This document shows positions 6,996 to 35,235 of a stretch of 53,509 nt of DNA, in pieces; position 1 is the first letter of the stretch, and each line of letters opens with the position of its first letter. This DNA comes from Fragilariopsis cylindrus CCMP1102 (lineage: Eukaryota > Bacillariophyta > Bacillariophyceae > Bacillariales > Bacillariaceae), in NCBI GenBank assembly GCA_900095095.1, contig FMBT01000554.1, positions 1 to 53,509 of the forward strand, read 5' to 3'. A program made the position numbers and the translations under genes. The notes under the pieces are model-generated. The model had not been told where the DNA came from, ran no database searches, and saw only the letters and a list, made by a program, of their open reading frames with translations.

Positions 6996-7091
6996 TTTAT
7001 AAATAACAATCGGAACAGATATACGATAGAGGAAACCATCGAACAAGTTTGTTGAACACATTATTCTCCTACAACCAAGGTCAATACAATA

Positions 7092-9217: not shown

Positions 9218-9246
9218 ATTCCAAGCGTCTACAGCCCGTTAATCAA

Positions 9247-12200
9247 ATGGTAATCAATGTGGGGGAGGATCAACAGCCATCGATCCTTGATATCCCCGAT
9301 GCAACAATCATTCCATCTACATCGTATTCATTCGCGACAGTCAAGTTTGAAGAAGATAGTGGTGGAGTGCTTCCCAATGCCCAATTGTTTCCAACAATGA
9401 GACCTAGTGAAGCAAGGAGTGGGCACAACAAACTCTCCCGTGGAAATATATCGCTAAATGCGCTAGTTCTAGACAGTGGTGCATCACTGCATCTGTTTGC
9501 GAATGCAGACATGCTCCAAAAAGTGAAGGCAAACCCAAGCCCAACAACTATTCACTGTGGTGGCAAATCGTGGTCTAATAATCAAGTTGGCGAACTCTGT
9601 GATGATCTAAAAACACTTCCTTTGCCACAAGATACTCTACACCTACACAAGGACGGAGTGGCGAACCTGATCTCGCTGGCCGAGCTTTCTAAGCTCCATC
9701 GTATCACCCTTGATACTAGTGTTGATAATGCCTTCTATGTCTACAAAGATAATGGCGAATATGTCAGATTCGGAGTGGAACCAAATGGGCTATACTGTTT
9801 ACATGTGGATGACGGATCATCCCCAGCCACCCTGTTAACCACGGTTGAAGAAGAAAAGAAACTGTTTTCAGCCCTAGATGTCAAGAGGGCTACGATGGCC
9901 CGCTACATTCAAGATTGCTTATGCCTCCCCTCTGATGAGGACTTTGCACATGGGCTAGAAACAGGTGCGATTAAGGAGTGTGGCGTGAGTCGGAGAAACA
10001 TAAATATAGCTAAGGCTATTTTCGGGCCCAACAAGCATTCTGTACAAGGCAAAACTGTCCAAAGAACAAACAGAATGCCAAGAGAAGACCAAATCCTCGG
10101 AGTACCACCTTCCATACTTAAGCACTATTCGGAGGTGACTGCGGGCATAGATGTTATGCATGTTAATGGAGTCGCGTTTCTAATTGCCACTTCCAAGCAC
10201 ATACGTTTCATCCAATGCATATGTATTAGAAACAAGTCGGACGACATGTACATTGCAGCAATAAAGAAGATGGATAATATTTATAAGCTTCGAGGCTTTA
10301 AAATAAAAACTATGTATGCAGACCGAGCTTTCCAACACTGTCTCGATGCGCTTGCCCTGCAAGAAATAACCCTAATCTGCTGTGACAGGAATGCACATGT
10401 ACACTTCATTGAGAGGTGTATCAGGTTCACCAAGGAAAGGATCCGAGGTGTTCGATCTATGATGCCGTTCACGAAGATTCCGAAGCGGCTACTTATGGAA
10501 GTGGTATACACGGTGGTACAGTTAATGAATGCCATCAACAGGAAAGGGGGAGTGCACCCCACGATGTCTCCTAGACAAATCATAACAGGCAAGAAGCTAC
10601 TTATCCCACCATACATGCCCGGTGCATATGTATATGGTGTTCCTGGAGGAAGCTCAAGCAGTGTGGAGAAACCAAGAACGTTTGATGCCCTCTATCTACG
10701 ACCAAATGATGGGGGTGGTGGTCATTTTGTGTATAACATCAGTACCAAGCAAAGGAACTCAGTTCCAAGAGTGATTGGACTAGAAGGGAAAGGGATTCCC
10801 ATGACAAGTGACATCATTGCAACTATCAATGAGCAGGGCAAGAGCGAGGGTCAACCTGATGGACTAATCTTTGGTGACATTGATAACCTAACAACCGTCC
10901 TTGACCTAGAACCAAGTAATGAAGAGGGTGAAGAGCCCGAATTTGATGACGACGACGCATCAGACCAGTCGTACAATCCACAAGAGGATGACGATAGTGT
11001 ACTCATTGACGACCACAACATGAACCCACATCAATACGATGATGAGGAAGCAGGAGTGAATGACGACAATGTAGATGACAATGAGGTACCACAGGATGGT
11101 GATGACCCAATGCTCGAGGAGTTGAATGTGGTTGAAGAAGATGACGACAACGACACCGTTGAAGAATACGTTATCGATGAGATTGATGAAGGCTCGGACC
11201 CAGGTTCGATCCACGAAGGCTCGGACCCAGGTTCGAACCCATCTGAAGAAGAAGAAGACCGACCAAGAATGGAAGGTCTGGATGGTGATTACTGGAACAG
11301 GAAGGGTGAAGCAAACTACTGTCTATCCATCATAAAAGGCTTCGGAAACCTAGAAGCGACGCTGTCGACCCCACAGTACGGATTCAAAAAGGGACTAACT
11401 GTATTTGGTGGTCCAGGGTATGATGCGACTATTAAGGAGCTAGATGAAAATCTAATTGGTAGGGATGTGATACAAATGTTGCACCCAAGTTCAGTGACTT
11501 ATGATATATTCAAGCTATCACTAAGTTACCTCATGTTCCTCAAGAGGAAGAGATGTGGTACGATCAAGGCACGAGGTTGTGCAGACGGTCGATCACAGAG
11601 AGATTACATTACCAAAGACGAGTCGAGTTCACCCACAGTGAAAACACAAGCCCTTATGGTCAGTTCCCTCATTGATGCGATCGAACGGAGATGCATTGTG
11701 ATCGCAGACATTCCAGGAGCATTTCTCCAGGCGGATTATCCACAAGAAGAAGGCAAAGAGTGTTACCTCAAGTTTGAAGGAGTAATGGTTACTATGATCT
11801 GTGAAATCAAACCTGAATACACCAAGCTCATCAAAAGGAATAAAAAGAACGGCAAGCAATGGTTAGTAGGCAAGGTCACGAAAGCTATTTATGGAACGCT
11901 CCTTGGTGCCAGACTATTCTATGACAAGCTACGAGCATTCCTGGAATCAATTGGATTTACAGTGAACGATTATGATGAATGTACATTCAACTCCATGATT
12001 GAAGGAAAACAGTGTACTATACAATTCCATGTGGATGACCTGAAGATGTCTCATGTGACACAGTCCGTGCTGGATGATGTCATTGACAAGCTGAACAAGG
12101 AATTCGGAGTGAACAAGAAGATGTCTGCAAGCTATGGAAAGATCCATGAGTACCTGGGGATGACCATTGATTACTCTGAAGATGGCATTGTGAAGTATAC

Positions 12201-12468
12201 AATGTACGATTATTTGGAAGACATCATGGTAGAAGCACCAGATGATATGGATGGTAAATCAGTAACAGTAGCAAGTGATCACCTGTTTACAGTTGATGAA
12301 GAATGTGAAAAACTGGACCCTGAAGTTGCAGATTATTATCACCGAACAGTGGCAAGGCTGCTGTTTGCAGCCAAAAGGGCCGTCCGGACCTGCAGACGGC
12401 TGTTGCATTCCTATGCACCAGAGTTGCCTCACCAGATAAGGATGACTACAAGAAACTGGCCAAAGTAA
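9247..12468 (+). CDS. Copia Pol: protease, integrase, reverse transcriptase
   Basis: A 1073-residue frame; the same frame is open upstream of this ATG to at least about 9190. Domains in order: aspartic protease LVLDSGASLHLF (near 9466-9500), a pre-integrase segment with DGVANLISLAELSKLHRI, an integrase core (Asp in TAGIDVMHV, Asp in MYADRAF, Glu in HFIERCIRF), a long acidic linker with a short duplicated block (near 11190-11235), and a Copia-type RT (RVT_2) with GRSQRDYITK, IVIADIPGAFLQADY and the catalytic FHVDDLKMSH. The last ~30 residues after ARLLFAAKRA are out of frame: the RNase H domain continues in the -1 frame from 12381. The break lies at the run ccaaaagggc. Enzyme motifs all look intact. 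Confidence 0.93.
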   Translation: MVINVGEDQQPSILDIPDATIIPSTSYSFATVKFEEDSGGVLPNAQLFPTMRPSEARSGHNKLSRGNISLNALVLDSGASLHLFANADMLQKVKANPSPTTIHCGGKSWSNNQVGELCDDLKTLPLPQDTLHLHKDGVANLISLAELSKLHRITLDTSVDNAFYVYKDNGEYVRFGVEPNGLYCLHVDDGSSPATLLTTVEEEKKLFSALDVKRATMARYIQDCLCLPSDEDFAHGLETGAIKECGVSRRNINIAKAIFGPNKHSVQGKTVQRTNRMPREDQILGVPPSILKHYSEVTAGIDVMHVNGVAFLIATSKHIRFIQCICIRNKSDDMYIAAIKKMDNIYKLRGFKIKTMYADRAFQHCLDALALQEITLICCDRNAHVHFIERCIRFTKERIRGVRSMMPFTKIPKRLLMEVVYTVVQLMNAINRKGGVHPTMSPRQIITGKKLLIPPYMPGAYVYGVPGGSSSSVEKPRTFDALYLRPNDGGGGHFVYNISTKQRNSVPRVIGLEGKGIPMTSDIIATINEQGKSEGQPDGLIFGDIDNLTTVLDLEPSNEEGEEPEFDDDDASDQSYNPQEDDDSVLIDDHNMNPHQYDDEEAGVNDDNVDDNEVPQDGDDPMLEELNVVEEDDDNDTVEEYVIDEIDEGSDPGSIHEGSDPGSNPSEEEEDRPRMEGLDGDYWNRKGEANYCLSIIKGFGNLEATLSTPQYGFKKGLTVFGGPGYDATIKELDENLIGRDVIQMLHPSSVTYDIFKLSLSYLMFLKRKRCGTIKARGCADGRSQRDYITKDESSSPTVKTQALMVSSLIDAIERRCIVIADIPGAFLQADYPQEEGKECYLKFEGVMVTMICEIKPEYTKLIKRNKKNGKQWLVGKVTKAIYGTLLGARLFYDKLRAFLESIGFTVNDYDECTFNSMIEGKQCTIQFHVDDLKMSHVTQSVLDDVIDKLNKEFGVNKKMSASYGKIHEYLGMTIDYSEDGIVKYTMYDYLEDIMVEAPDDMDGKSVTVASDHLFTVDEECEKLDPEVADYYHRTVARLLFAAKRAVRTCRRLLHSYAPELPHQIRMTTRNWPK

Positions 12469-13121
12469 TAAGATATATTAGAGAGACCATCCATCTACCA
12501 CTTGTATTGGGATGGGACGAATCTGGAAGATTGACATGGAGTATTGATGCATCATTTGCTGTCCACATGGATATGAAAAGCCATACAGGCTACTGTCTAA
12601 CGATGGGAAGAGGATCCGTTGTATCAGGGTCCATCAAACAGAAGCTTACGACTAGAAGTTCGACTGAATCGGAATTGGTGGGTGTCGATGATACCATAAC
12701 ATTTATTGAATGGATTAGTTTGTTCATGAAATGCCAAGTTAAAAACTACCCTGATAGTGATCCACTGAAGCTACTTGGGACCAAAGTCCTCGCATTGCAG
12801 GACAACACAAGCACCATTAAGCTAGCGCGAAATGGTCGACGTTCATGTGGGCAGAGAACTCGCCACATTAACATTAGATATTTTTATATCACGGATAAGA
12901 TTAATGATGGTACAGTTGTTATGTTATATTGTCCAACAAAGGAAATGGTATCAGACTATTTCACCAAGCCGTTGCAGGGGTCACTGTTCAGATTGCACAG
13001 GAATGCTATCATGGGAGTATCACAAGCTGACTATAACTGGTATGAAGAACAGTACAAGGAAGCCAAGAAAGCATCGAAGCTATTAGCAGATAAGCTTTTA
13101 GCAGAAACTAATACAACCTGA
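12381..13121 (+). CDS. Copia RNase H domain, separated from RT by a frameshift
   Basis: The frame continues directly from the RT block after a one-base shift. It holds the Copia RNase H catalytic pattern: Asp in WSIDASFAVH, Glu in RSSTESELVG, Asp in ALQDNTSTIKL, and the conserved end KEMVSDYFTKPLQGSLF. It has no ATG near the break, so it is not a separate gene. Without repair of the frameshift the element would make RT lacking RNase H. Confidence 0.9.
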   Translation, partial: RPDLQTAVAFLCTRVASPDKDDYKKLAKVIRYIRETIHLPLVLGWDESGRLTWSIDASFAVHMDMKSHTGYCLTMGRGSVVSGSIKQKLTTRSSTESELVGVDDTITFIEWISLFMKCQVKNYPDSDPLKLLGTKVLALQDNTSTIKLARNGRRSCGQRTRHINIRYFYITDKINDGTVVMLYCPTKEMVSDYFTKPLQGSLFRLHRNAIMGVSQADYNWYEEQYKEAKKASKLLADKLLAETNTT

Positions 13122-13169
13122 GTTGTTATTACATTATCATATATGGATTCACTCATGACAATGTAGGAG

Positions 13170-13414
13170 TGTATTGGGGACTGAATTAGTTCCTACTCGA
13201 TACTGCGTTACTAAGAATCGTATTCTACGATCGAACGCTAGCCACACTATCTGTGTACAGTTGATACTGTAACAGCGTGTGTGGTATCATTACAATGATA
13301 TCTACTTGATATCATTGTTATTTATAAACTTAACATTATAAGAGATTATTTCTTTTATTAACTGCTTCTAGTTATTCTATGCATTTAGCACGTAGATTAG
13401 CTTAGATTATAACA
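13170..13414 (+). repeat. 3' LTR of the Copia element
   Basis: 245 bases, identical to 6751-6995 on direct reading. A purine-rich tract (gtaggag) precedes it and would prime plus-strand synthesis. Confidence 0.95.
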
Positions 13415-21954: not shown

Positions 21955-22626
21955 CAAGTGGTAATAGGATGGGACAATCTCCTCAGAGGAAAATTCTCAA
22001 AACAATGGAAAATTCAACAGAAAGCATTCATATTCAGAAGAAAAATGATGGATCCAAGAACATATGCAAGAGTACAAAGGAACAAGAAACGAAAAGCTAC
22101 AATGGGCAAAACCGTCCTGAAGAAGAAGAACAAAACAGAAGCTTTCAGTGCTTTCTTCCAAGCTATCATACCAATTATACAGGAGATATGGACAGACAGA
22201 TGCATTGATTGAATCACACCTGTATTAGGGGGCTGAATCGTGGCTGAATATGATTCCCTATCCAAGAAAGTCACTCACTTGTATACACTGAAGGAAATGG
22301 TACTGCCAGAAGATGAATTAAAGATGTATGATATAACACTTGCAACAGGATTAGAAGATACAAATCAACAATTGAAGAAATGGATAAACAGATGGAGACA
22401 AGTCATAGACCACAGCATGAAAAGAGTGAAGGAGCTGGCAAAAGAAAACAGCAAACCGATATGGAGACACTTTACGAAGAACAAACCAGCAAAGATAACA
22501 GTGTCAAGGAAGATAAGCACAAAGATACATAGTAAGCTGAAGAAAATGTTCAATAATCCACTCACTAATGTGTTCAAACGCCTACGAAAGAAAGTGAAGC
22601 GGCAGCTATCCTACGAAAGAAAGTGA
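21955..22626 (+). pseudogene. Decayed retroelement C-terminal fragment
   Basis: One frame runs through this span with two in-frame TGA codons (22210-22212 and 22234-22236). The readable part contains VIGWDNLLRGKFSKQW, IIQEIWTDRC, and, after the stops, VTHLYTLKEMVLPEDE and LKKWINRWRQVI. This pattern (a W-x-x-x-L-x-G-x-[FI]-S-x-x-W block, then I-W-x-x-R, then a Tyr/Leu-rich block) recurs in diatom genomes near reverse-transcriptase-like reading frames, as I recall. Both stops could have arisen from CGA by C-to-T change. The fragment ends in a 29-base tandem duplication. Not an active gene. Confidence 0.5.
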
Positions 22627-22638
22627 AGCGGCAGCTAT
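22581..22638. repeat. 29-base exact tandem duplication
   Basis: Two adjacent identical copies (22581-22609 and 22610-22638), each beginning cctacgaaagaaagtg, at the 3' end of the decayed retroelement frame. Confidence 0.95.
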
Positions 22639-23087
22639 TAAATAATAAGTTATATACTACCTAACCTCAACAACAACAACAACAAGGGAAAGACTACAGT
22701 GTACTATGGAACTAAATTCCCCCTTTTTCACTTAAAGAAGCATGATTATCATCATCTAACTATACACCCTAAAAATTTAAGGTTGCCTAAGTACCTACAT
22801 TACCATCATCTTGCCATGCCAACATCATAATAATAATAAAAGATGCAAAGTAAGTAAAAATGTGGATATTATCTATGGTCCACGTGTCAGGATTTCAATC
22901 GTGTCTCCGTCTATAAATGTAGGAACCCCTCGCAGACCTAAATCCTTTTAATGTACAGAATAGACTGCTACCTATTCAGTCCAATTTCCTGAACGTATTG
23001 CTTTATGTAGTGTATGTTGAAGTTAGAACACGGCGAGTACAATCCTCCTACTGGCTAACGTCACATCATCAAGCGACAAATACATGT

Positions 23088-23341
23088 AGAATCTACTTCG
23101 CCCAATTCACGTGCGCCGTCTCGGCTGGTCTGCTCCTACAGAATGCATGGCATGTGCTGGAGGCACTATTTCTAGCTATGTGATCTACCTATGGTCCTAT
23201 GAATACTATGTTTAGTACATAGGAGTGATTGGCAGGTTAACTAAGCTGCTAGAGAGATAGTGAGTGATTACTGTAGAGATTGCATTTCGGTATTCGGGTT
23301 TGGGGATCCCGAAATTGCGATCGTTGCAGGAAGCGCGATGC
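23088..23341 (-). repeat. Split direct repeat B2 (element 3' end)
   Basis: 254 bases, identical to B1. The outer edge at 23088 is the downstream boundary of the element. A 20-base C/A-rich spacer (23342-23361 on the coding strand) separates it from A2. Confidence 0.95.
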
Positions 23342-23361
23342 GAGGTGTGGGTGGGTGGGAA

Positions 23362-23692
23362 AAAGAAAAATCCCATGGTGAGATCCTGTTAGCTAGATTA
23401 GCTTGATAGGAATCGCAACCCATGGAAACAGACATCAGAAGAAACAATGGAACGAGTGAGTTTACGTTCCGTCGTCTGATTTCCCTATCCTTCCTCTCTT
23501 GGCGATTCTGCTTTGCCGGATCGTCATATCCTGTACCTTAAGGGTACTGCCTTACTCTACCTACGAATCTTATCTACGTATCCTACTAGTATGCTTCGTT
23601 GGTAACGGCGCGAATCTTCAAGCGTGGTTCGGGGTAAACGGACGGACTGTGATTGTCCTTCCGTTGCCTGTTGTCTGGAGTCTTGCACTGGA
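23362..23692 (-). repeat. Split direct repeat A2
   Basis: Second copy of A, directly abutting B1. The A2-B1 junction is what would form if the outer ends A1 and B2 were joined in a circle, as the replication model for this class predicts. Confidence 0.95.
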
Positions 23693-23945
23693 GAATCTAC
23701 TTCGCCCAATTCACGTGCGCCGTCTCGGCTGGTCTGCTCCTACAGAATGCATGGCATGTGCTGGAGGCACTATTTCTAGCTATGTGATCTACCTATGGTC
23801 CTATGAATACTATGTTTAGTACATAGGAGTGATTGGCAGGTTAACTAAGCTGCTAGAGAGATAGTGAGTGATTACTGTAGAGATTGCATTTCGGTATTCG
23901 GGTTTGGGGATCCCGAAATTGCGATCGTTGCAGGAAGCGCGATGC
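23692..23945 (-). repeat. Split direct repeat B1
   Basis: 254 bases, identical to 23088-23341. Lies between the element body and A2. Contains a small inverted repeat ttcggg / cccgaa near 23897-23917. Confidence 0.95.
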
Positions 23946-24275
23946 TCCTAACACCGCCACTAATGGGCTGCGACTATAATGAGTCGGTTGATGGTGTTTG
24001 TACCAGTAATCGGTGAGTTCGTAGCCGCCATGTAAATATAGTGGCAGGCCAGCCGGATAAAAAAGAAAAGAAAAGAAAGTTTTTTTTTTTTTTTTTTTTT
24101 TTGAAATTTTTTTATATAGTTAATATTATACTTTGTTGTATGTTATTTGGCATAATCGGGTATAGATGATGCCAGTTATGTTATTTGGCATGATCGTATG
24201 TAGATGATGTCAGTTGTAGTATAGTGGGACGTATTTGTATGTACGCTCACGGTATGTATGTATTGTTATTGTATA

Positions 24276-24406
24276 GTGAGTCTGTCGAGGATCAGTGCTC
24301 ACGGATCGTATGTAATGTAATGTATAGTGAGTCTGTCGAAGGATCAGCGCTCACGGATTGTATGAAATGTATTGTATAGTGAGTCTGTCGAAGGATCAGC
24401 GCTCAC
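24276..24406. repeat. Triplicated ~51-base unit containing a GTGAG...CTCAC hairpin
   Basis: Three units start at 24276, 24327 and 24379. Each has gtgagtctgtcga, then ggatcag, then gctcac, able to fold GTGAG against CTCAC. They lie between the last ORF and B1, in the presumed 3' untranslated part of the YR element. A second duplicated block around ttatttggcat lies just upstream (about 24143-24215), and a long poly-T run at about 24080-24102. Confidence 0.8.
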
Positions 24407-24429
24407 AAATGTATTGGTGGATTGTATGT

Positions 24430-25446
24430 TTAACCAACCCTAGTCCCAGTTTTGGCAGCGATAGTCCACGCCTTGAGGTATTTCAATTCGCGGATCTGAG
24501 AACGCTTTGCATTGGCCTTTCCAGGTCGAATGTCCACAACAGGACAGATCTTGTTGTGCAGGCAGGTGTTAATATAGTTTTTGAAACCTTTTCGATCCCA
24601 ATCTTGCTCCAAGAATTGGGAACCAAGAATAAGACCGGCACTGGTGTCGTTGAAAGGGAGAAGGAGTCGTTCCTTTCTGAATAAAATGCAGAAGATGGGC
24701 CAATAATGGGGGCCAGCCTCATCTTCAAATTTGTGTTTAGTCGCGCAATACTCGATGATGATCGGTTTTGTGTGGTCAACTGACAATAGGGCTTCGTAAG
24801 TCATCTTTGGAACCTCCCACGTTTTAACGCCGTTTTTATTGAGGAAACGTATAACGTCGTCTGCTGGCATGTTATCACCGCGATCACGCGGAATATGGTT
24901 AGCGAATTGTGTGTTGACACTACTGATGACAGCGTCCGTAGCCTTCGTCATCTGGAATACTGTGTATAGCAGCTGCATTGCGTTGAATTTGTAATACGGG
25001 TGCGGTCCGGTACTCAATTCCTTCACGACGACCTCGATCGTGGGTGAAGAATACTTCTTTAGATAGTGGTTGATAAGCGCATTGCCGAAAATGTGGTGGA
25101 TTCCATATTCGTCCTTTTCCGACAACATTGCGTCGAGTGCCGCTTCGTTGGGTGGAGCAAAGTCGAGTCGACGTCTTACGTTACGATCCGATTCAGGTGT
25201 GACCCCGACGATGCTCGTTTGTGCGGTTGCTACCGGAGTCTTTGTTCCAATAGCAGCGGCGTAGGTTGTTGTACCAGCCGCGGCAAGCCCGGAATACAAT
25301 CGCTTGATATGTCCAAGGACCATGAATTGTTGCGCTACTGGTAAAGCACCCAACATATTATAGTACGATGGATCAACCGGAGGAGGTGGGACAATCGGAG
25401 GAGATGGTGCCTTTTTAGGAGACATGAAGCCGAATAGACTTTTCAT
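24430..25446 (-). CDS. YR-element accessory ORF, unknown function
   Basis: 338 residues from the ATG at 25446, intact. It begins with a Pro-rich tail (KKAPSPPIVPPPPVDP), then an Ala/Thr-rich linker and a C-terminal folded-looking domain (~residues 105-338) with KPIIIEYCATKH, GPHYWPIFCILF and LLLPFNDTSAG. No recombinase, RT, methyltransferase or SGNH-hydrolase motif was recognised, although related elements of other hosts often carry methyltransferase or hydrolase ORFs. It lies downstream of the recombinase, before B1, so it belongs to the element. It is the only long element ORF other than gag and the recombinase that begins with ATG and shows no internal break. Confidence 0.65.
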   Translation of the reverse strand: MKSLFGFMSPKKAPSPPIVPPPPVDPSYYNMLGALPVAQQFMVLGHIKRLYSGLAAAGTTTYAAAIGTKTPVATAQTSIVGVTPESDRNVRRRLDFAPPNEAALDAMLSEKDEYGIHHIFGNALINHYLKKYSSPTIEVVVKELSTGPHPYYKFNAMQLLYTVFQMTKATDAVISSVNTQFANHIPRDRGDNMPADDVIRFLNKNGVKTWEVPKMTYEALLSVDHTKPIIIEYCATKHKFEDEAGPHYWPIFCILFRKERLLLPFNDTSAGLILGSQFLEQDWDRKGFKNYINTCLHNKICPVVDIRPGKANAKRSQIRELKYLKAWTIAAKTGTRVG

Positions 25447-25931
25447 TGTAATCGGTAGTGTGTATTTGAACTCGGGGATTGATTTGTCGAGTTTTTGAAT
25501 TTATGTGTACGTTATGGACAGAACGTTTGTGTGGAAAAGTGAAATATTGAAAGTTTTGTACATCGTTGCCGATGTATGCTGGTTACTATAGCATGGTTCT
25601 GTATGTTGGTTACGAATAATAGAAACGACGAAAGAGAAACGTGATGATTCCGTTGCGAATTGCATCGATAGGAGTATATGATGTTATGCTGAAAATTGTC
25701 AGTTGTGGTCGAATGTAAAATGTGTGTCAGTTGTTGACATCGCGATTCTGGATGCGCGATTATGCGCGCAATATTCAAATTTTTACGACTAGAAAAAAAC
25801 GGTCGGATCAACGGCTTTCGCATTTGGCGATCCGATGGTTGGTAAATTTGAGAGGCGTATATATTAGTATTATTTATTTTTAGAGAGCGTTCGTAATATG
25901 CAATCGGTACAGTATGTATTGGAACGATTGA

Positions 25932-27080
25932 TTAATATGCGTCCAATAGTTGTGTAACGGTTTCCAATTCATTTGACATTGTATTTGACAAGTCAATCGA
26001 TTCGCTCCAAAGGTTTCGAGTGTATAATTTCCATGATTCGCTGCACCATCTTAGTGCTCGCTGGATATAGTCCCCCGATTTCCCTTGCGATTGGAGAATA
26101 CATGCCATTCCTACTCGGATAGAATGATTTGTCCATTTGCTAAGTTCCTTTGGATCGGTTATGCCGTATTCAAGGCGGACGATGTTCTGTAGAATACTTT
26201 TTGAATCGTCGGAACAGATGTTCAACACTTTCCCTTTGGCATAGTCATAATAAATTGCAAGAGGGCGTGTCTTGTCTTCTAATCCAACCAAACGGGAGAA
26301 GCGTTCGAGAATGGTTATCCAATGGGTGATTTGATCCATGAACGGTGATCTATAGTTACGCGCAAAGCGCTTTACTTCTCCGTTCTTTCCGTTTTTCTGC
26401 ACTCTGAAAGTGAGTTCCACGAAGTACACCTCATCACGATTTTGTATTGCATATGGCGTTGTAAAGCGTCTCTGTCCTATTCCAAGGAACTGGACATCAT
26501 CAACACAGAATGCATACGTTTCGTTTCGAATGTTGAGTTCTGGTTCTTTGGTGGGATCCCGGCTAGCATACGGTTGGCACCATTCGATGCGTCGGCAACC
26601 TGCTGGGAGAACGCAACTAAACCACTGGAATCCTACTTTAGTTAGGCTATCAGCAGGTTCATCTTGCGATTCTTTGTATAATCTGGCTTGAAGTTGTAAT
26701 GTCCAAGGCTCTCTTCGGTTCGGTTGTTTTTCAAACCGCTTCATTTCATCAATGACCTTTTTGATCGGGGGTGCAAGAACAGCGGTCCCGGTAAACATAC
26801 GAGCGTCCCGATCACTTATTTCGTCGAAGTTTTTTAAAAACTTCTTGATAGTAAGAAGATATGCATCGACTGTTCCCGATTTGATACTTTTCAAGCCGAT
26901 CGCATGTCCTGTTGCCAGGAAAGCTGTGTAACAGGCTAGGAGGTAGACCAGAGACGTATCGGTGAGTGTGATTAGAGGAAATATTGAGTCGTAGACACCT
27001 CGGATTGTGCACCAGTAGATAAAATGGCATCGACGGGTACAAGCTGTCCGTTTCTCTGTGGCTTTTGTGGACGCTCCCAT
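25932..27080 (-). CDS. Tyrosine recombinase of the YR retrotransposon
   Basis: 382 residues from the ATG at 27080. A helical SAM-like core-binding segment (YLLACYTAFLATGHAIG ... VDAYLLTIKKFLKN) precedes the catalytic domain. Visible catalytic pattern: box I Arg in LPAGCRRIEWCQ, then HSIRVGMA as the H-x-x-R box, RWCSESWK in place of the H/W position, and Tyr in KLYTRN. This is the DIRS/Ngaro/Crypton style. It would integrate circular cDNA by strand exchange. The upstream RT/RNase H frame probably continued into this one: a -1/+1 frame between them (about 27000-27220) still reads as a linker with LPILRSYRVFLLSPEL. The catalytic half is intact. Confidence 0.88.
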   Translation of the reverse strand: MGASTKATEKRTACTRRCHFIYWCTIRGVYDSIFPLITLTDTSLVYLLACYTAFLATGHAIGLKSIKSGTVDAYLLTIKKFLKNFDEISDRDARMFTGTAVLAPPIKKVIDEMKRFEKQPNRREPWTLQLQARLYKESQDEPADSLTKVGFQWFSCVLPAGCRRIEWCQPYASRDPTKEPELNIRNETYAFCVDDVQFLGIGQRRFTTPYAIQNRDEVYFVELTFRVQKNGKNGEVKRFARNYRSPFMDQITHWITILERFSRLVGLEDKTRPLAIYYDYAKGKVLNICSDDSKSILQNIVRLEYGITDPKELSKWTNHSIRVGMACILQSQGKSGDYIQRALRWCSESWKLYTRNLWSESIDLSNTMSNELETVTQLLDAY

Positions 27081-27206
27081 CTCACATTTTTTAACAATGA
27101 TGAGCTCAGGACTGAGAAGAGCTCTGGACTCAAGAGGAAAACCCGATAGGATCGCAGAATTGGAAGTTTCTGACAGACCTGTTTAACGAGTGTAGAGAAA
27201 GGGACA

Positions 27207-28421
27207 TCATAAATTGTTGTTAGTTTTTGGAGTAAAGAGTTCGTGAGGACGCGAAATTGTATCTCCCATTTCGTTCTTGATTCCTTGCAAATGTTCCGCA
27301 TACGATTTGACATTGGCATCGATGGAATACTCTGCAGTCAATCGGATTTGGTTTTGTCCCATTGTAGAAGCTGTACTGTGGTGGTTGAGCCACGAAACCG
27401 ATGGCGTATTGTCACCTAACGCCAAGTGCGTTGGTGAAGGAGGAAACGCCAACGGGTTTTCGTCGTAGATTTCGTTGATGATGATATGAGCCAGCTGGAG
27501 CGCGATGTACTCGAGGCTATTAATGAAGACTTCTTTGTCTTTTCCTAGGCCTTTGATTCGTGAGAAAAGGTCTTTGCCGAATGGTACCAAACAAAATACT
27601 TTGGCTTGCTTGATGTATACGGATAGGGCTAAATCAGATGCATCGCCCGATGTTGTCCAAGTCGGCATTCTAGGAATAATATGTCCTATGGGACATTCCC
27701 ATCGCTTATCTGCTAGACTGCGTATGATAATCATGACACACTTAGTTATTGGTTCACTGAGTGCAAAATAGATTCCGTTACGGTACATGTAGGCAGCATA
27801 TTCTGTTGCAACGATGCTTTCCATCCGATGCCTCATGGTGGTGGGCAATCGACGTACTTTATTATCGATTAGCTTTTTAAGTCGTTGATCGATTTTCGCT
27901 TTTTTGTATCGTATTGCCAGTTCCTCTCTTACGAGGTTCTGCAGTATGAATAATTGGGCTCGAGCCCAAGGATTATATTCTGCTGCTGAGCCAATTAAAC
28001 CCAAGACGGTGCATGCTTCTCTGATTGATTTAAGTGAACCTACTACTGTCCACCCTTCATCGGTCAGATATGCTATGACCTTAGCACGTCGTCGTACTGA
28101 AACGACGACTACCATTCTACGCGATTGCACTTCGTGTCCGACGGTGAGTCGTTCTTCGTTGTACAATGGATTGAACTTCTTTTGTGATAGGGCCTTCTCC
28201 TGGCACGGATGGTCTACTCCAAAAACGTCCTCAAGAGACATGATGCTAGATGCTGCAGTCAGTTTGAAATATTCTTCGACGTCAGCATACATGCAATCAT
28301 CTACTTGCATAGGAAATTCCGGTGGTTTCCGTGATCCGTTATTCCGAAACACGCCCGTGTTGAGGGCGTCCTTTGATGCTTGTGTGAATGATTCCGTCGA
28401 GGTGCATTCTTCAAAGACCAT
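27207..28421 (-). CDS. YR-element reverse transcriptase C-terminal part and RNase H
   Basis: 404 residues from the ATG at 28421. Near its start it has FPMQVDDCMYADVEEYF, which fits RT motif C (x-V-D-D), followed by a thumb-like region. The RNase H pattern follows: Asp in TTSGDASDLALS, Glu in INSLEYIALQL, Asp in LALGDNTPSVSWL. A fourth acidic residue may lie in EMGDTISRP. The first ~10 residues are uncertain: the frame joins the upstream RT block through at least one single-base shift at 28425-28490. The C-terminal end is also probably frame-shifted, as the neighbouring frame continues the polyprotein towards the recombinase. Confidence 0.8.
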   Translation of the reverse strand: MVFEECTSTESFTQASKDALNTGVFRNNGSRKPPEFPMQVDDCMYADVEEYFKLTAASSIMSLEDVFGVDHPCQEKALSQKKFNPLYNEERLTVGHEVQSRRMVVVVSVRRRAKVIAYLTDEGWTVVGSLKSIREACTVLGLIGSAAEYNPWARAQLFILQNLVREELAIRYKKAKIDQRLKKLIDNKVRRLPTTMRHRMESIVATEYAAYMYRNGIYFALSEPITKCVMIIIRSLADKRWECPIGHIIPRMPTWTTSGDASDLALSVYIKQAKVFCLVPFGKDLFSRIKGLGKDKEVFINSLEYIALQLAHIIINEIYDENPLAFPPSPTHLALGDNTPSVSWLNHHSTASTMGQNQIRLTAEYSIDANVKSYAEHLQGIKNEMGDTISRPHELFTPKTNNNL

Positions 28422-28444
28422 TCGGCTTGTATGGTCCCACTGCT

Positions 28445-29404
28445 CTAGCTAAAGTACGTTCTGGGTTCTTTCTCCAGAGATAGCTTGCCTTGTTGCTGCC
28501 GTCCTTTTTGCTCTTGGTCAAAATTCGGTGGAGAAAAACAGGCGCCGAAGCATTGTCCTGTAGAGAACCCGAGATGCCCATTCGCCATGAAGCCATTCAT
28601 GGCAACTGTAGACGGATTGTTTTTGATGAATCTGAAAGCATTCGTCATATCGTCGTCGCCAAGGAGGATACGTCGCTTTGGATATGAAATCCTTAGGTTG
28701 TATATCCACTGGCAGAATCGAACGAAACTTCCAGCAAAATAGACTGGAGGTTCGTTCTTTTTGTTGGTCCAATCATTGATTGACATCGATTCCGGGTGTA
28801 CGCGATGTGAGCAATCGGATATGTGGCGGGCCTCTTTCCATAGATTAAAAAGGTCTGCAAGTCCTTGTGGAGAAAGATGACTGTTCGGGATGTACGCGAA
28901 TAGTCTTGGATCGACGAGTAAAGTGTTACCTCTTCGGTGATCCTTTAGAAGTACTTTCTCAACTTCGTCTTCATTATCGTTAACGGATTCGTGGTTGCCG
29001 TATTGGTAGTAATCTTTCAAGTTCTGTTCAGTATTGGTGGCATTAATATGCCTTGGCGAACCGTGCTCGAAGACACGCTTGATTTCGGCTAGGATTTCTG
29101 GTTGTACCCCTTTCTTTAAGTCTTGGAGGATTTTTGGTACATTCCGGTTTGCCCCAACGTGTGGGCCACCGAGGTAATATACCAATTTCTCAACATCGCA
29201 GCTATGTTGTAGCAGAGCTGCCGAATGGAGACGGATGCGATGCTTGTTGAGTTCTGTTTCGTCTCGGAAATCTTTGTAGTTTTCAAATCCGCGAATAGGT
29301 TCCGTATCGACCGAACCGTACTCGGATTGTAGTTCTGAAAACTGTTTCGCTAGGAACGAAACTTCTTCGAGGTTCCTTCTGGCTTTCCTTGTCAAGGAAT
29401 TCGC
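28445..29404 (-). CDS. YR-element reverse transcriptase, N-terminal part
   Basis: An open frame of about 316 residues without an ATG at its start. RT fingers/palm features: ILLGDDDMTNAFRFI is motif A with the catalytic Asp, and GHLGFSTGQCFGACFSPPNFD-type wording (positions ~28530-28600) fits motif B. An upstream segment with a WKEARHISDCSHRVHPESM core fits the RT fingers. It likely follows a 3' splice site (tttag at 29405-29409 on the coding strand) and continues the exon at 29492-29820, with one frameshift near 29370-29400. The motif C part lies in the next block. Confidence 0.75.
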   Translation of the reverse strand, partial: ANSLTRKARRNLEEVSFLAKQFSELQSEYGSVDTEPIRGFENYKDFRDETELNKHRIRLHSAALLQHSCDVEKLVYYLGGPHVGANRNVPKILQDLKKGVQPEILAEIKRVFEHGSPRHINATNTEQNLKDYYQYGNHESVNDNEDEVEKVLLKDHRRGNTLLVDPRLFAYIPNSHLSPQGLADLFNLWKEARHISDCSHRVHPESMSINDWTNKKNEPPVYFAGSFVRFCQWIYNLRISYPKRRILLGDDDMTNAFRFIKNNPSTVAMNGFMANGHLGFSTGQCFGACFSPPNFDQEQKGRQQQGKLSLEKEPRTYFS

Positions 29405-29491
29405 CTAAATACAAGAAAGGGATAATATGGCGAAAACGATATTCACTAGTAAACGAAATATTTTTATGTCGCATACTCTTTGTATTCTTAC

Positions 29492-29820
29492 CATTTATGT
29501 CGAATAAGGGTTGTTTGACTCCCTCCGGCAGGCTTTTGGCCCAATTATGTAGTTCGTTGGTTGAGAACGAGGCAGGAGGTCAGCGTTCACGAACGGACTT
29601 TGGTTGGGATGACGATGAGACTCAACGTTTGCTTTTGGGAAGGAATTCTTCGGTAAAGGCAGGCGATCGTTCATGATTGTTTTGCTCGCTATTTTAAATA
29701 GAGGACTACTAGGATCGCACCCGAGTGGTACACTGGATCAATAGGGATTATTGGTTGGAGTACCTTGTTGCTTGAGAAAGCACAAGAAAACAGGCATCGA
29801 GCGTGCTGGTGTTTGGCTCT
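29492..29820 (-). CDS. Putative pol 5' exon of the YR element
   Basis: Between gag and RT. If a GT-AG intron is removed at 29971-29821, the gag frame runs on here for 27 codons to a TGA, and the same frame then stays open for a further ~60 codons. After a one-base shift it reads NELHNWAKSLPEGVKQPL up to a donor consensus gtaaga at 29491. A second intron (29491-29405, 87 bases) would then lead to RT. This is inference from frame continuity and splice consensus only; the TGA and the shift are unexplained unless they are sequence errors. Confidence 0.4.
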
Positions 29821-29963
29821 CTGCAGATAGGTGAAATAAGTGCTAGTGAAGGAATGTTAGAATAAGAGTATGTAAATTAAACGAAAATTAGTTAATCTTA
29901 TATGTAATGTGTATTTGTTCGATTCGTGGGCGTGGATAGTAGACATAAGAAACGTGGTTTTGT

Positions 29964-32288
29964 TTACTCACTATTCTTGGGTTCTCTTCCAGGTGCCCAT
30001 CGGACTTTGTTTTTCTTATCGTTTACCCAAGTTCTGACTCTTCCTTGGAATTCCGGGGTAAGTTTGTCGAAACTGTTGGCATGGATGCGATTGCATGCAT
30101 CTGCACCGCAGTGACGTCCCACATAGATCCAGCCATTGCATAGGCGTTTTCCATCATGGAATTCCCCGCAAGAAGGTAATTTCTTGCTGGTTCCAGTGTA
30201 CATGAGCCATCCCTTTTTCTCTTTCTCTATTACCTCGTTGGTCTTGACGGCACGATTAGGATTGTCCTTTACAGGCTTATCGTGCTTTGCGACACCTTTG
30301 GGCTTTCCCGAAGCAGGTGCGTCGCCCTTTTTCGCATCTTTCTGGTGTGTCGGTGTGCCAGAATAGTCCTGTTGTTTGATAGTAAACTTCCTTCCTGATA
30401 TTAGAGGAAACCAGGAAAACGTCTCTGGGGCGTTGATGAAAGTGCTGACAGGTTCGACGCATCGTTGTGTCCAAACAAAGTGCATTTTTTCGCATACTGA
30501 CTTGATGCGGTTGGCATGTGCGCCAGGAATTTCAGCATCGTTCTTGACCATTCGGACAAGGGCATCGTTGTTGGATGTAAATTTCTGGACACCTACCAAC
30601 AGTATTTGTAACTCGCAGACCAAGTGATGGATAGTGTTCGAATAGGTACGAGTATTCAAAGTTAACCAACCGGCCCCTTCGGAACTCTTGACGTATGTGA
30701 GTAGGTTCTCAAATCCCTTGTAGATTAGCGATTCTTTTCCATTCTCGAACATAACACGGATAAAACACATGAATGTTGCGATACAGGTGTAAAGATGGAA
30801 ACGATCGACCTGATAACCGTCGATGAAGAGATTGGTGGTCCGCTTAGTATGTTTCGTAATATCGCATTCCATCTGATCCTCCTCTTGGGCCGTTTGGTCA
30901 GATTGTAACATCTTCTGGAATGCTAGATTGTCCTCGTCGGCAGGAAGAAAATTTAAAATGGTGATCTGAGCGTCGAAGTCCAAACGGTTGTGTGCAAGGG
31001 CTGTTCTCATAAATTGCATACTTTTCAATTTGACAACAAAGACCGCGTTGAATTGGCGTTCGTTGAAGATCAAGTTGTCCGCTGCGATGTTTCCCCCTTC
31101 ATCCGTCATGGCTACTGCTTCGGAGTGCATAGCGTTCTGGAAGCATTGTGCTGACAAGGTTTTGTTTTTATCAGCGAAGATACTTTTGCACGCTTCGGAA
31201 ATTGTTCCTAGCACAAGAATTTCTTCACCGAAACCGTTTGTCCCGGTAGATGCTCCAAAAAGTTTCAATTTCTCCTCAACGTTGTTGGAGAAACCTGTCT
31301 TTTTAGCATCATCCGATTTGCTACGCTTCGCGAGTGCGTCACCGATAATTTTTGAATATCCGGCGAGGTCAGTCGCTGTAGTCTGATTCGGTTGGACTGT
31401 TTCGGTAGACGCGCATTGTCCGACATCGAACAATGCTCGTCTTGTAACAACTTCCGCCTCGTCGAAGTGCTGACGATGGAAATCAGATGATGGCAAAACT
31501 GGCATTGGACATAGGACGTAAGTATCTTTCGAAATCATGTCTCCTGTAGCTTGAATGATCCTGTCGTAGTTGTTCTCTTCAGCATCAGCATCAGCGACTG
31601 TTTCGTGGAACTGGTCGCGACCGAAAAGCATGTCGTTACCTGCCACTGAACCAGTTACTGGTACACCCTTGTTGATGGCTTGGAGGATCTTGACTGCCTT
31701 TAACCAGGCTAAGAAATATGGGGGATATTCCACTTCGGAAGGTGGAAGATCTTCATCGACTTTATGGCCGAGGGGTAAAGGATGTCCATGAGGAATGGGA
31801 ATAGCAATTGGTAAGATTACCAACTTCGGATCGTCCTCGTTACCATCGAGGCCGATGTCCGCTAAAGTGACGAGAGAACCATCAGGTTTGATGAGCTCAT
31901 CGACGTCGACGTCATCGATCGTTCGGAACCCTCCCATGTTTACCATCTCTCTACTCATGATAGCGACGAAGTTGTTGAAAACTGTGTTGCCGTTGCGAAG
32001 GCGGACCATTGTTGTATCCATAATGCCGTCTCCAGCAATTGCTGCCATGTCATATCCCTCAGCTGGAATGACGCAGCGTAATACATCGAGCTTCATGTCC
32101 TCGTTGATGAACACGTATCGTAGATTTTCGTCAGGTTGGATGCGACCGATGTTCGAGGACGCATCTTTTCCAAGATTCAAGTGGTAATCTTTTACGTTGG
32201 TTCTTGGTGTTCGTAGTGGTAGTACAGAGTAGGTGTTGTAATTCTTGTTAAAGCAATTTAATCGTAAGACGTTGGTTTGGGAAGCCAT
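29964..32288 (-). CDS. Gag-like protein of the YR retrotransposon with CCCH-type finger
   Basis: 774 residues from the ATG at 32288 (MASQTNVLRLN). The frame is open slightly further upstream but only with a GTG. The long N-terminal part has no recognisable domain; it is a mix of helical and acidic stretches, with a core typical of nucleocapsid-forming proteins only by position. Near the C-terminus there is a basic Lys-rich linker and a metal-binding cluster, C-x9-C-x4-C-x3-H (CNGWIYVGRHCGADACNRIH), a CCCH-like finger that would bind RNA. Uninterrupted, unlike the pol part. Its TAA stop overlaps a splice donor consensus (gtgagt at 29971-29966), see findings. Confidence 0.8.
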   Translation of the reverse strand: MASQTNVLRLNCFNKNYNTYSVLPLRTPRTNVKDYHLNLGKDASSNIGRIQPDENLRYVFINEDMKLDVLRCVIPAEGYDMAAIAGDGIMDTTMVRLRNGNTVFNNFVAIMSREMVNMGGFRTIDDVDVDELIKPDGSLVTLADIGLDGNEDDPKLVILPIAIPIPHGHPLPLGHKVDEDLPPSEVEYPPYFLAWLKAVKILQAINKGVPVTGSVAGNDMLFGRDQFHETVADADAEENNYDRIIQATGDMISKDTYVLCPMPVLPSSDFHRQHFDEAEVVTRRALFDVGQCASTETVQPNQTTATDLAGYSKIIGDALAKRSKSDDAKKTGFSNNVEEKLKLFGASTGTNGFGEEILVLGTISEACKSIFADKNKTLSAQCFQNAMHSEAVAMTDEGGNIAADNLIFNERQFNAVFVVKLKSMQFMRTALAHNRLDFDAQITILNFLPADEDNLAFQKMLQSDQTAQEEDQMECDITKHTKRTTNLFIDGYQVDRFHLYTCIATFMCFIRVMFENGKESLIYKGFENLLTYVKSSEGAGWLTLNTRTYSNTIHHLVCELQILLVGVQKFTSNNDALVRMVKNDAEIPGAHANRIKSVCEKMHFVWTQRCVEPVSTFINAPETFSWFPLISGRKFTIKQQDYSGTPTHQKDAKKGDAPASGKPKGVAKHDKPVKDNPNRAVKTNEVIEKEKKGWLMYTGTSKKLPSCGEFHDGKRLCNGWIYVGRHCGADACNRIHANSFDKLTPEFQGRVRTWVNDKKNKVRWAPGREPKNSE

Positions 32289-33447
32289 GATGTTTGATTT
32301 CCGTTTGTAAGTTCTCGTCAAGCGTATTGTGAGCACCTGATCTGATTATTGTGTTACGTTGTGGTTTTGTGAAGAGACGATTCGTAGGTAATGAATCGTT
32401 GTTTTCTCCTGTGAAAAGACGGTTCTTGTGCAGTTAATCGTTGTTTATCCATATATCTATCAGTATATATTGGTTAGACATCGACATTGACGTCGGAGTC
32501 GACGTCGGAGTCGACATAGACATCGATATTTACTATCGGTTTTTGATTGCTGCGATTTGTACATAGCTGAATGTAGTCTTTGAAAGAGGCATTAGGTCAG
32601 TTGTATCAGCATCGGTTCTTCTACGATCGCGAACTTTGTCCGATGCAGTCTTCGTTTGAAGAGCGCGATCGATCATCGAGTTGTTGTTTAAGGATGTAAT
32701 CATGGTTGTGAAGGAATCCTCATATATGTTTGATTATATATATATATATATGATTCGGCAATTATGAATAAAGTCACTTTTGTCGAATTTTGTATCGGAA
32801 TAGTAGTCGTGGTGACATGTGGTTCATCTTATATGTTTGGTGAATATTGTTACACTTAGTGAATGTGACTTTCACGAATACTATGTACCTAAGCATTCCA
32901 TTTGTTTGTGCTTGGTTCCAATTGCCTCGACTAGTCACTTCAACTCGGAAAGGAGAACATGTACTCCCCTGAAAGCCAATGTTGGACTGTTCGTTAAGTA
33001 ATTTTTGAAAGTTGAGTCAAGGTTCGCAGTCGAAGCATCAGTCACGAATCGCCACAGAGGATTCGTGAATTAGTTTTGCTAATAAACGATTCGTGGATTA
33101 GTTTCGCTAATGAAAAACTGTCGATTGACGATGGTGAAGATTGATCCTTGTAAGGAGTCCTCAGATTTGGTTTTGTGAATCGCTAAGCGAAACGTCGTGA
33201 GACGGTAGTCGTGAGACAGGGTGTCGTGAGACGGTAGTCGTGAGACAGGGTGTCGTGAGACGGTAGTCGTGAGACAAGAATATGGTGTAAATCGCATGTC
33301 TGATTATGGTAATACAGATATTTGTTACGATTATTGAGTTTTGTGTCATCTTTGTATTTGGACGTTAGTTGTTGTTTCGTGTTCGGTAGAACAGAAACGG
33401 TTGATATGTTGTCAACGAATTGGTTGTGAAACCTGTTTGTTACTGTT
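32289..33447. other. 5' leader of the YR element
   Basis: Non-coding, between A1 and gag. Contains a GACGTCGGAGTC-type short repeat near 32487-32512, a TA dinucleotide run near 32737-32751, repeated attcgtgaatta/attcgtggatta motifs near 33060-33110, and a 29-base minisatellite at 33194-33275. It presumably carries the element promoter. Confidence 0.5.
33194..33275. repeat. 29-base minisatellite in the YR element leader
   Basis: The decamer gtcgtgagac occurs six times, alternately followed by ggta and agggt, giving nearly three 29-base units without mismatches. Confidence 0.95.
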
Positions 33448-33778
33448 AAAGAAAAATCCCATGGTGAGATCCTGTTAGCTAGATTAGCTTGATAGGAATC
33501 GCAACCCATGGAAACAGACATCAGAAGAAACAATGGAACGAGTGAGTTTACGTTCCGTCGTCTGATTTCCCTATCCTTCCTCTCTTGGCGATTCTGCTTT
33601 GCCGGATCGTCATATCCTGTACCTTAAGGGTACTGCCTTACTCTACCTACGAATCTTATCTACGTATCCTACTAGTATGCTTCGTTGGTAACGGCGCGAA
33701 TCTTCAAGCGTGGTTCGGGGTAAACGGACGGACTGTGATTGTCCTTCCGTTGCCTGTTGCCTGGAGTCTTGCACTGGA
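33448..33778 (-). repeat. Split direct repeat A1 (element 5' end)
   Basis: 331 bases, matching 23362-23692 except one T/C difference (33760, in the motif ttgcctggag). The outer edge is the element boundary with the host gene at 33833. Confidence 0.95.
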
Positions 33779-33832
33779 AGATCGATAGATAGTACCATAC
33801 ACTGTACCAAAAAGGAACACGATACGAGGACG

Positions 33833-34405
33833 ATGTCATCAACAAATGATAGTAATCCACTGTCACCATCATTACCACTACCACCACCGCCACAGAAGGA
33901 TGATACAGCCCTGACGGACTGGTACGTTTTGTCTTTTTCTCGACAACGTTAATAAATCGTCGTCCCACACGGTAATATGAATTGAGAATTGAGTACTGAC
34001 TTTTCTTCGTTTTTGCTTTGATTTATGATATATAAGATTACCGTACTCACAAATTTCTATATAAATGTACTCTTATCTTGAATGAAATGGATATATCTCG
34101 TAACTTCCATTCCCCGTACGATACGAATTCACTAACTAACTAATAGTTTGTTATCACAATATCGATTAACTGCATCCGGTATTGGTTTAGGAACAGCATA
34201 TTCATTAAAATATAAAAAGGGATTAATACCTATGATAGCAGCTGGTGCGATTGGTTCAACATGTGATTTAGTTTATGGATACTTCATAGAATGTGCGCAA
34301 TTTACAAATAATACAAATAATAATAATAATAATGATACTGATACTGATAATGGTACACCGAATATAAATTCCAATTCAAAATCAAATGAAAAATACTTTA
34401 AGTAA
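33833..34405 (+). CDS. Small two-TM glycine-motif membrane protein (MIC10-like?), two exons
   Basis: Exon 1 is 33833-33921; a 225-base GT-AG intron spans 33922-34146 (gtacgt ... taatag); exon 2 is 34147-34405. The product is 115 residues. A Pro-rich N-terminus precedes LTDCLLSQYRLTASGIGLG, then YSLKYKKGLIPMIAAGAIG and DLVYGYFIECAQF, then an Asn/Asp-rich tail. Two short hydrophobic segments, each with Gly-x-Gly spacing and separated by a basic loop, recall MIC10 of the mitochondrial MICOS complex, but the match is from memory and weak. The splice phase is exact. The YR element ends 54 bases upstream of this start codon, so its original promoter is displaced by 10.7 kb or replaced. Confidence 0.6.
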
Positions 34406-35235
34406 TAATGATACGAATGAAATATCAAATGAAAATCAAATGTAAATGTAAATCAAATGAAAATGATATCGTATTACAAAAAAGCAACAGTAGATACTGA
34501 TACATACTGTAATTGGAACGACGACGACGACGATGACGACAACAGCTAAAACACAACAACAGCTAAAGCAATAACGTGACGTGATGAGTGACGATAGAGT
34601 CCAACACTATCAATATCAATATCAACACCAACATCTGGTGTAGATAGCTTTGGCGACGGTGAACAACAAGCGATAAACGATAAAAGAGAGAAATAAACAT
34701 ATTTATGATAAAAGATGGATGGAAACTCTACGTTTTAATTTGATTTAATTTAGTTCAATTTTGTTCTATTTTTATTTTATTTTAGTAGTAGCATTTTATT
34801 TTCGAAAAAGATGAAGATAACAATATAATGATGATGATGATGACAATCAATCTTATCAATCTTATATATCCTCCTCCTCTACCAAAACGACCACGACGAC
34901 GACGACGATGACGACAACAGCTAAAACACAACAACAGCTAAAGCAATAACGTGACGTGATGAGTGACGATAGAGTCCAACACTATCAATATCAATATCAA
35001 CACCAACATCTAGTGTCGATAGCTTGGCGACGGTGAACGACAAGCGATAACGATAAAAGAGAGAATAAACATATTTATGATAAAAATGGATGGAAACACT
35101 ACGTTTTAATTTGATTTAATTTAGTTCAATTTTGTTCTATTTTTATTTTATTTTAGTAGTAGCATTTTTATTTTTCGAAAAGATGAAGATAACAATATAA
35201 TGATGATGATGATGATAACAACCTATCTATCAATC
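34406..35235. other. Intergenic region dominated by a tandem duplication
   Basis: Lies between the small membrane protein gene and the TAM41 3' end. Most of it consists of the two ~375-base copies listed separately. Both copies contain possible poly(A) signals (aataaa near 34693 and 35064). No ORF is supported. Confidence 0.6.

What the first reader, a model, noticed from the sequence alone, without database searches (positions are those of the whole stretch)
23088..33778. A PAT/Ngaro-like tyrosine-recombinase retrotransposon with complete split direct repeats in a diatom-like genome
Seen: 331-base A repeats at 33448-33778 and 23362-23692 (one difference) and identical 254-base B repeats at 23692-23945 and 23088-23341, ordered A1-body-B1-A2-B2 on the coding strand, with Gag, RT, RNase H and an HxxR...Y recombinase between them. 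Known: this layout belongs to PAT/Ngaro/Kangaroo-type YR elements. Inferred: a recently active member in a stramenopile, a lineage where such elements are not commonly described to my knowledge.
Basis: partly seen in the sequence, partly recalled or inferred. Interest (0 to 1): 0.92.

Follow-up and report, generated by a model that had tools for sequence, protein, structure and literature searches.

The report
Tyrosine-recombinase retrotransposon in a diatom
A diatom genome carries many almost identical copies of a jumping gene that appears to copy itself through RNA and to splice itself into chromosomes with a recombinase enzyme; the layout is known from other organisms, but the proteins are very divergent and it carries an extra gene of unknown function that differs between copies.

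Summary
The host fits a diatom (silicon-transporter genes). Eighteen of 19 full-length A repeats found are identical, so the family moved recently; eight left and six right ends share the same end points. Corrections: this copy's RT/RNase H frame is broken by differences absent from the copies compared, and its two flanks belong to different loci, so the contig is chimeric or the copy recombinant. Two empty sites do not decide whether insertion duplicates a few target bases. Subgroup open: no room for a methyltransferase domain, which argues for Ngaro/VIPER-like and against PAT-like, but no phylogeny was possible. PAT-like and Ngaro elements are published from other stramenopiles, and DIRS copies are listed for the diatom Phaeodactylum. 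The least expected feature is ORF4: in one copy its protein is 38% identical although the recombinase upstream and the ends are almost identical.

The parts
33448..33778 (-). A1, left terminal repeat (331 nt); element begins TCCAGTGC on the coding strand
29964..32288 (-). Gag-like ORF, 774 codons from the first ATG
   Evidence: no Pfam family above its cut-off; named Gag by position
30081..30140 (-). C-x9-C-x4-C-x3-H motif near the C-terminus of the Gag-like protein; same spacing in family II (C90), not found in family III
   Evidence: zinc-finger reading is recalled
28445..29404 (-). first part of the reverse transcriptase (DDD and FG motifs, recalled), 319 open codons
   Evidence: the frame ends at differences absent from 11 of 11 other copies aligned
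27207..28448 (-). second part of the reverse transcriptase (VDD motif) and RNase H (D, E, D aligned across three YR families)
25932..27080 (-). tyrosine recombinase, 382 codons from the first ATG; R, K, H, R, W, Y at residues 197, 263, 353, 356, 379, 387 of the 416-codon open frame
   Evidence: weak profile match to Cre
24430..25446 (-). ORF4, 338 codons, function unknown; variable or replaced in other copies
24288..24391 (-). two 52-nt tandem units downstream of ORF4
24080..24102 (-). 23-nt A run on the coding strand, near where the C684 copy returns to identity
23693..23945 (-). B1, internal copy of the right terminal repeat (253 nt)
23362..23692 (-). A2, internal copy of A (331 nt); B1|A2 equals right end joined to left end
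23342..23361 (-). 20-nt spacer between A2 and B2, present in 6 of 6 right ends examined
23089..23341 (-). B2, right terminal repeat (253 nt); element ends GTAGATTC on the coding strand
33779..34721 (.). left flank, belongs to locus X (aligns to empty site on C678)
22300..23088 (.). right flank, belongs to a different locus Y (22300-23083 aligns to empty site on C770)

Best explanation
A recently mobile YR (DIRS-order) retrotransposon of a diatom, structurally closest to Ngaro-like/VIPER-like elements. Inferred cycle: the element is transcribed, the RNA is packaged by the Gag-like protein and copied by RT/RNase H. The internal B1-A2 block carries the two termini already joined, so it can serve as the template that restores the ends lost from the RNA and closes a circular DNA. 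The recombinase then recombines the B|A junction of the circle with a chromosomal site, giving a left end that starts with A and a right end that ends with B. ORF4 is an accessory gene of the element. Shown here: layout, shared ends, repeat identity, YR active-site residues, empty sites without a long duplication, ORF4 replacement. Inferred: RNA intermediate, circle, template role of B1-A2, all protein activities. The window copy itself is probably not functional as read, and its contig probably joins two loci.
For: Repeats and order. 19 full-length A repeats, 18 identical. Same ends at 8 of 8 full-length A repeats with a genomic left flank (6 distinct flanks) and at 6 of 6 right ends (6 distinct flanks). 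Empty sites on C678 and C770 for the two flanks, with no duplication longer than about 10 nt needed. YR residues R, K, R, W, Y kept in two other families of this genome, H in one of the two. RNase H D/E/D and the VDD motif align across three families. A profile of the YR alignment finds Cre as best solved structure, weakly (E 0.075). No methyltransferase-sized gap between RNase H and YR. Host: 27 matches to the silicon-transporter family, all over its cut-off.
Against: None of 14 frames scanned (9 of them expected to hold RT, RNase H or YR) matches a Pfam RT, RNase H or integrase family at E up to 1. Both single-sequence structure predictions failed (pLDDT 34.0 and 38.9). Lack of a target duplication, expected for YR insertion, is not shown: at C678 no duplication scores best by a hair (90.5 against 90.0 for 2, 6 or 10 nt), at C770 a 6-nt imperfect duplication scores best (101.0 against 98.5). 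RT-RH and YR frames overlap, whereas Ngaro and VIPER usually lack ORF overlap (PMC3266345, passage). The window copy has private frame breaks and mismatched flanks.
Confidence: 0.88

Rival explanations
1. A PAT-like (Toc3-like) element that has lost the methyltransferase domain.
For: PAT-like elements share split direct repeats (PMC4157794, passages); the RT-RH and YR frames overlap here, unusual for Ngaro/VIPER; PAT-like families exist in the brown alga Ectocarpus; losses of the methyltransferase domain have been inferred.
Against: No room for a methyltransferase domain between RNase H and YR.
Confidence: 0.25
2. The window copy is a real product of ectopic recombination between two elements at loci X and Y, not an assembly chimera.
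For: Left flank X and right flank Y each have their own partner elsewhere (C684 and C669); 10-kb near-identical copies favour ectopic exchange.
Against: C743 carries the same left flank X with yet another right flank; four contigs (C84, C265, C342, C773) give second-unit matches of equal score whose loci are cut short at the same length, which looks like a repeat-graph effect.
Confidence: 0.2
3. An LTR retrotransposon with rearranged ends.
For: Direct repeats at both ends, RT and RNase H; a short target duplication is not excluded.
Against: YR with a full active-site set and no integrase match; split A/B order with B1-A2 joined exactly as the two ends would join.
Confidence: 0.03

Closest known systems
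Ngaro-like elements (Cafeteria burkhardae Ngaro types 1-4, PMC8547959; Xenopus Ngaro, PMC9210276; passages)
   Same: A1-[ORFs]-B1A2B2 repeats, Gag / RT-RH / YR order, no methyltransferase, and in amphibians an extra ORF after YR
   Different: Cafeteria Ngaro proteins were assigned to Pfam RT, RNase H and integrase families, these give none; the amphibian extra ORF is a hydrolase, ORF4 matches no family; RT-RH and YR frames overlap; about 10.7 kb instead of about 6 kb
VIPER-like elements (VIPER, TATE; PMC6681497, passages)
   Same: A1 at the 5' end, B1-A2-B2 at the 3' end, no methyltransferase
   Different: described from kinetoplastids; sequence relation not testable here
PAT-like elements (Pat1, Toc3, Kangaroo; PMC4157794; Ectocarpus families PMC12477816; passages)
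   Same: split direct repeats, RT-RH and YR
   Different: no room for a methyltransferase domain; a CCCH-like motif in the Gag-like protein and no match to the CCHC pattern tried
DIRS1-like
   Same: RT-RH and YR
   Different: DIRS1-like elements have inverted terminal repeats; the repeat finder gave no inverted pair of 40 nt or more here
DIRS copies of Phaeodactylum tricornutum (PMC5859163, one table row seen)
   Same: DIRS-order retrotransposons in a diatom
   Different: 14 copies, 18,118 bases; their structure and sequences were not seen, so kinship is untested

Membership tests
YR retrotransposons (order DIRS) | reverse transcriptase and RNase H with catalytic motifs | tested here: met
   motif level only: alignment A2; no Pfam hit
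YR retrotransposons (order DIRS) | tyrosine recombinase with the R-K-H-R-W-Y set | tested here: met
   family III aligns K in place of H
YR retrotransposons (order DIRS) | no target-site duplication (recalled) | tested here: inconclusive
   two empty sites; 0 nt best by a hair at C678, 6 nt imperfect best at C770
Ngaro-like | split direct repeats A1...B1A2B2 with internal repeats downstream of YR | tested here: met
Ngaro-like | no methyltransferase domain | tested here: met
   short RH-YR spacing; ORF4 matches no Pfam family; a very divergent domain in ORF4 is not excluded
Ngaro-like | RT/RH clusters with Ngaro in a tree | not tested
   no reference sequences; protein search switched off
Ngaro-like | no overlap between RT-RH and YR frames (usual, not strict) | tested here: not met
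   frames overlap, read through in C265, C329 and C99a
PAT-like | split direct repeats | tested here: met
PAT-like | methyltransferase domain after RNase H | tested here: not met
PAT-like | zinc finger in Gag (Pat1 only) | tested here: inconclusive
   CCCH-like motif, no match to the CCHC pattern tried
VIPER-like | split direct repeats and no methyltransferase | tested here: met
VIPER-like | RNase H grouping with hepadnaviral RNase H, YR near Crypton (PMC6681497) | not tested
   no references available
DIRS1-like | inverted terminal repeats and internal complementary region | tested here: not met
   0 inverted pairs of 40 nt or more with 15-base seeds

The most novel reading that the evidence does not exclude
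The element belongs to a deep, so far uncharacterised YR-retrotransposon lineage of diatoms that carries an exchangeable accessory gene. ORF4 is kept under purifying selection but is replaced en bloc, from near its start codon to the A run before B1, by versions diverged to synonymous saturation, while the recombinase and terminal repeats on either side stay nearly identical; template switching between co-packaged RNAs would do this. Such turnover would fit a gene engaged with host silencing or with rival elements.
Probability: 0.28. Interest if true: 0.6.

Novelty: new member of a known kind. Interest (0 to 1): 0.38.

Why it matters
It adds a very divergent, young YR retrotransposon family with exact ends from a diatom. 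DIRS copies are already listed for one diatom (PMC5859163), so presence in diatoms is not new; in the passages I opened I saw no structural description of one, but only some of the listed papers were opened (listings; open PMC papers only). Near-identical copies with defined ends make circle formation and integration testable in an alga. ORF4 asks why a retrotransposon would exchange one gene while keeping the rest.

Tried and rejected
Viral contigs: four scans and one scan of bacterial/archaeal genomes: no relative confirmed. Phage records by tblastn with YR: none. Pfam on 14 frames (13 from YR families, one flanking frame): no RT, RNase H or integrase match. Structure predictions of ORF4 and YR from single sequences: pLDDT 34.0 and 38.9, not used. 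PDB search with ORF4: none; with YR alone only chance-level hits.

An intron upstream of RT suggested itself in the window copy; rejected as unnecessary because the stretch is read through in frame in C342. A single RT-RH-YR polyprotein (1314 codons, C342) was considered; rejected as the usual state, because it depends on a one-base difference absent from the window and from 7 of 7 other copies aligned there. Tandem arrays as products of circle integration into an existing copy (second units on C99, C84, C265, C342, C773) were considered; not claimed, because four of them give equal scores and are cut off at the same length, as an assembly effect would. A cysteine-protease reading of ORF4 was dropped: its H is not conserved in the relatives.
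Full report
What is there. The repeats are as described: A at 23362-23692 and 33448-33778 (331 nt, one difference), B at 23089-23341 and 23693-23945 (253 nt, identical). On the minus strand the order is A1, body, B1, A2, 20-nt spacer, B2. The joint B1|A2 reads GTAGATTC|TCCAGTGC, the element's right end abutting its left end. Between A1 and B1 lie a Gag-like frame (29964-32288), RT in two frames (28445-29404, 27207-28448) with RNase H, a recombinase (25932-27080) and a fourth frame, ORF4 (24430-25446).

Host. The window is contig C641 of a 67.9-Mb, 818-contig assembly. All 27 matches listed for the silicon-transporter family PF03842 exceed its cut-off (several are probably exons of one gene), the best with E 1.1e-226; of 14 control genomes one rings and none exceeds the cut-off. 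That fits a diatom.

Family and ends. A is found at 42 places (40 candidates scored, a lower bound), 19 of them full length; 18 of the 19 are identical and the odd one is the window's own A2. Of the 19, 8 have a genomic left flank, 6 lie between B1 and the spacer, and 5 lie between a B and a further body. All 8 left ends start TCCAGTGC, with 6 distinct flanks (C641, C743 and C21 share one); a ninth, C669, lacks the first two bases. All 6 right ends finish GTAGATTC with 6 distinct flanks. Five of the 6 distinct left flanks end in T; with so few this is not a site preference. Degenerate copies (C421, C155, C648, C721, C411) are 72-86% identical over the part of A they match.

Integration. C678 carries the left flank of C641/C743/C21 next to the right flank of C684, and C770 the left flank of C669 next to the right flank of the window; the aligned flank pieces are about 82-95% identical, so these may be alleles or related loci. 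Realigned with 0 to 14 bases allowed as duplicated, C678 scores best with none (90.5) but 2, 6 and 10 nt score 90.0, the flank being a short repeat; C770 scores best with 6 (101.0 against 98.5 for none). So no long duplication is made, and a short one is neither shown nor excluded.

The window copy. Its left flank belongs to locus X and its right flank to locus Y. The contig is therefore chimeric or the copy is a recombinant; I favour a chimera, because C743 has the same left flank with a third right flank. In the RT frame it carries a cluster of differences absent from 11 of 11 other copies aligned, and at the RNase H-YR border one absent from 8 of 8 (11 loci given, 3 did not span). These break the RT-RH frame in this copy. 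In C342 RT, RNase H and YR form one 1314-codon frame, but only through a difference not found in the window or in 7 of 7 others. In the other 7 the border sequence puts YR in another frame than RT-RH; the overlapping RT-RH frame can be followed to its end in C265, C329 and C99a, while other copies have breaks elsewhere.

Proteins. None of 14 frames scanned matches a Pfam RT, RNase H or integrase family at E up to 1. Aligned with two other YR families of this genome (26% and 18% identical), the recombinase keeps R197, K263, R356, W379 and Y387; H353 is kept in one of the two and is K in the other. The roles of these residues are recalled; coordinates are. A profile of that alignment finds Cre as its best solved structure, weakly (E 0.075). 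RNase H residues D269, E313 and D346 and the VDD motif align across the three families. The Gag-like protein has C-x9-C-x4-C-x3-H, with the same spacing in family II and no such motif in family III.

ORF4. It lies between YR and B1, the place where amphibian Ngaro elements carry a hydrolase ORF (PMC9210276, passages), but matches no Pfam family or solved structure. Eleven other copies were compared with the window. In 7 of the 10 with both regions covered ORF4 differs more than RT-RH-YR at nominal P below 0.01, in one (C773) at P 0.03, and in two (C743, C99a) it does not; C86 lacks the RT-RH-YR region. C773, C342, C265 and C84 give identical ORF4 counts (15 of 997) and may not be independent; in C53 the stretch between YR and ORF4 differs even more (7.4%) than ORF4 (3.1%). 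The extreme is C684: RT-RH-YR differs by 0.69%, ORF4 by 169 of 444 aligned bases (38%) with 555 more not aligned, and the 3' stretch by 11%; the switch is close to the ORF4 start codon and identity returns at the A run before B1. The window and C684 proteins are 38% identical, with dS about 1.7 (near saturation) and dN/dS 0.37; the other five comparisons give 0.48-0.58. Further relatives stand at C571, C260 and C86. A sudden change of one gene between nearly identical sides means replacement, not gradual drift. If the assembler had made the joint, two element types with nearly identical sides and different ORF4 would still have to exist. It is one locus.

How it works. From the anatomy and the model proposed for Ngaro and PAT elements (PMC6681497, passage), the B1-A2 block supplies the joined termini during reverse transcription, a circle forms, and YR inserts it. 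No RNA, circle or enzyme activity was seen here.

What it belongs to. [quoted passage not shown] the overlapping frames do not fit the usual Ngaro/VIPER pattern (PMC3266345, passage), though overlaps are called frequent in this order elsewhere (PMC9210276, passage). PAT-like elements share the repeats but not the missing methyltransferase (PMC4157794, passages). That paper warns that these features recur independently, so structure alone cannot decide. I file it as a YR retrotransposon with split direct repeats, subgroup open.

Known before. Ngaro and PAT-like families are reported from Ectocarpus (PMC12477816, passages), DIRS/Ngaro-like elements of Ectocarpus already in 2011 (PMC3145265, passage), and Ngaro from Cafeteria (PMC8547959, passages). 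From diatoms, a table lists 14 DIRS copies in Phaeodactylum tricornutum (PMC5859163, passage) and CryptonS is described (PMC3212892, passages). Passages opened in two diatom papers (PMC2806351; PMC3155517) mention DIRS only as probes and reference sequences or from another organism; those opened in PMC2774666 speak of copia elements in diatoms. Subscription papers and Repbase were not searchable, and not all listed papers were opened.

Noticed in passing
window 6751-13414: A second mobile element: 245-nt identical direct repeats, starts 6.4 kb apart, enclosing long open frames of up to 1116 codons that look like a copia-type LTR retrotransposon; the type is my reading, not tested.
   Followed up: no
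L079, L073, L050, L080 (C90:245000-257900); L084 (C573): A second YR family (recombinase 26% identical). C573 shows a B-A-B arrangement at its right end; C90 lacks the last B, is flanked on both sides by the same 72 nt, and has a 215-codon frame on the opposite strand downstream of its recombinase.
   Followed up: partly
L075 (C184:659500-665000) and matches: A third YR family, plus further weak recombinase matches (36 matches, its own copies included): this genome holds several YR lineages.
   Followed up: partly
C53:48820-88217 (L018, L017): A copy whose left and right A repeats are 39 kb apart; the alignment stops about 480 nt inside the left end, as if a large insertion sat there.
   Followed up: no
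C84, C265, C342, C773 (loci L056-L059): Four contigs give equal match scores in a second unit, and their loci stop at the same length, as if an assembler had copied one repeat path into each.
   Followed up: partly
L047 (C172): A sister copy about 67% identical over window 26881-28211, with the 3' tandem repeats close behind the recombinase fragment, so ORF4 appears to be missing.
   Followed up: no
window 34518-35173: Two segments (133 nt and 92 nt) repeated about 375 nt apart in the left flank.
   Followed up: no
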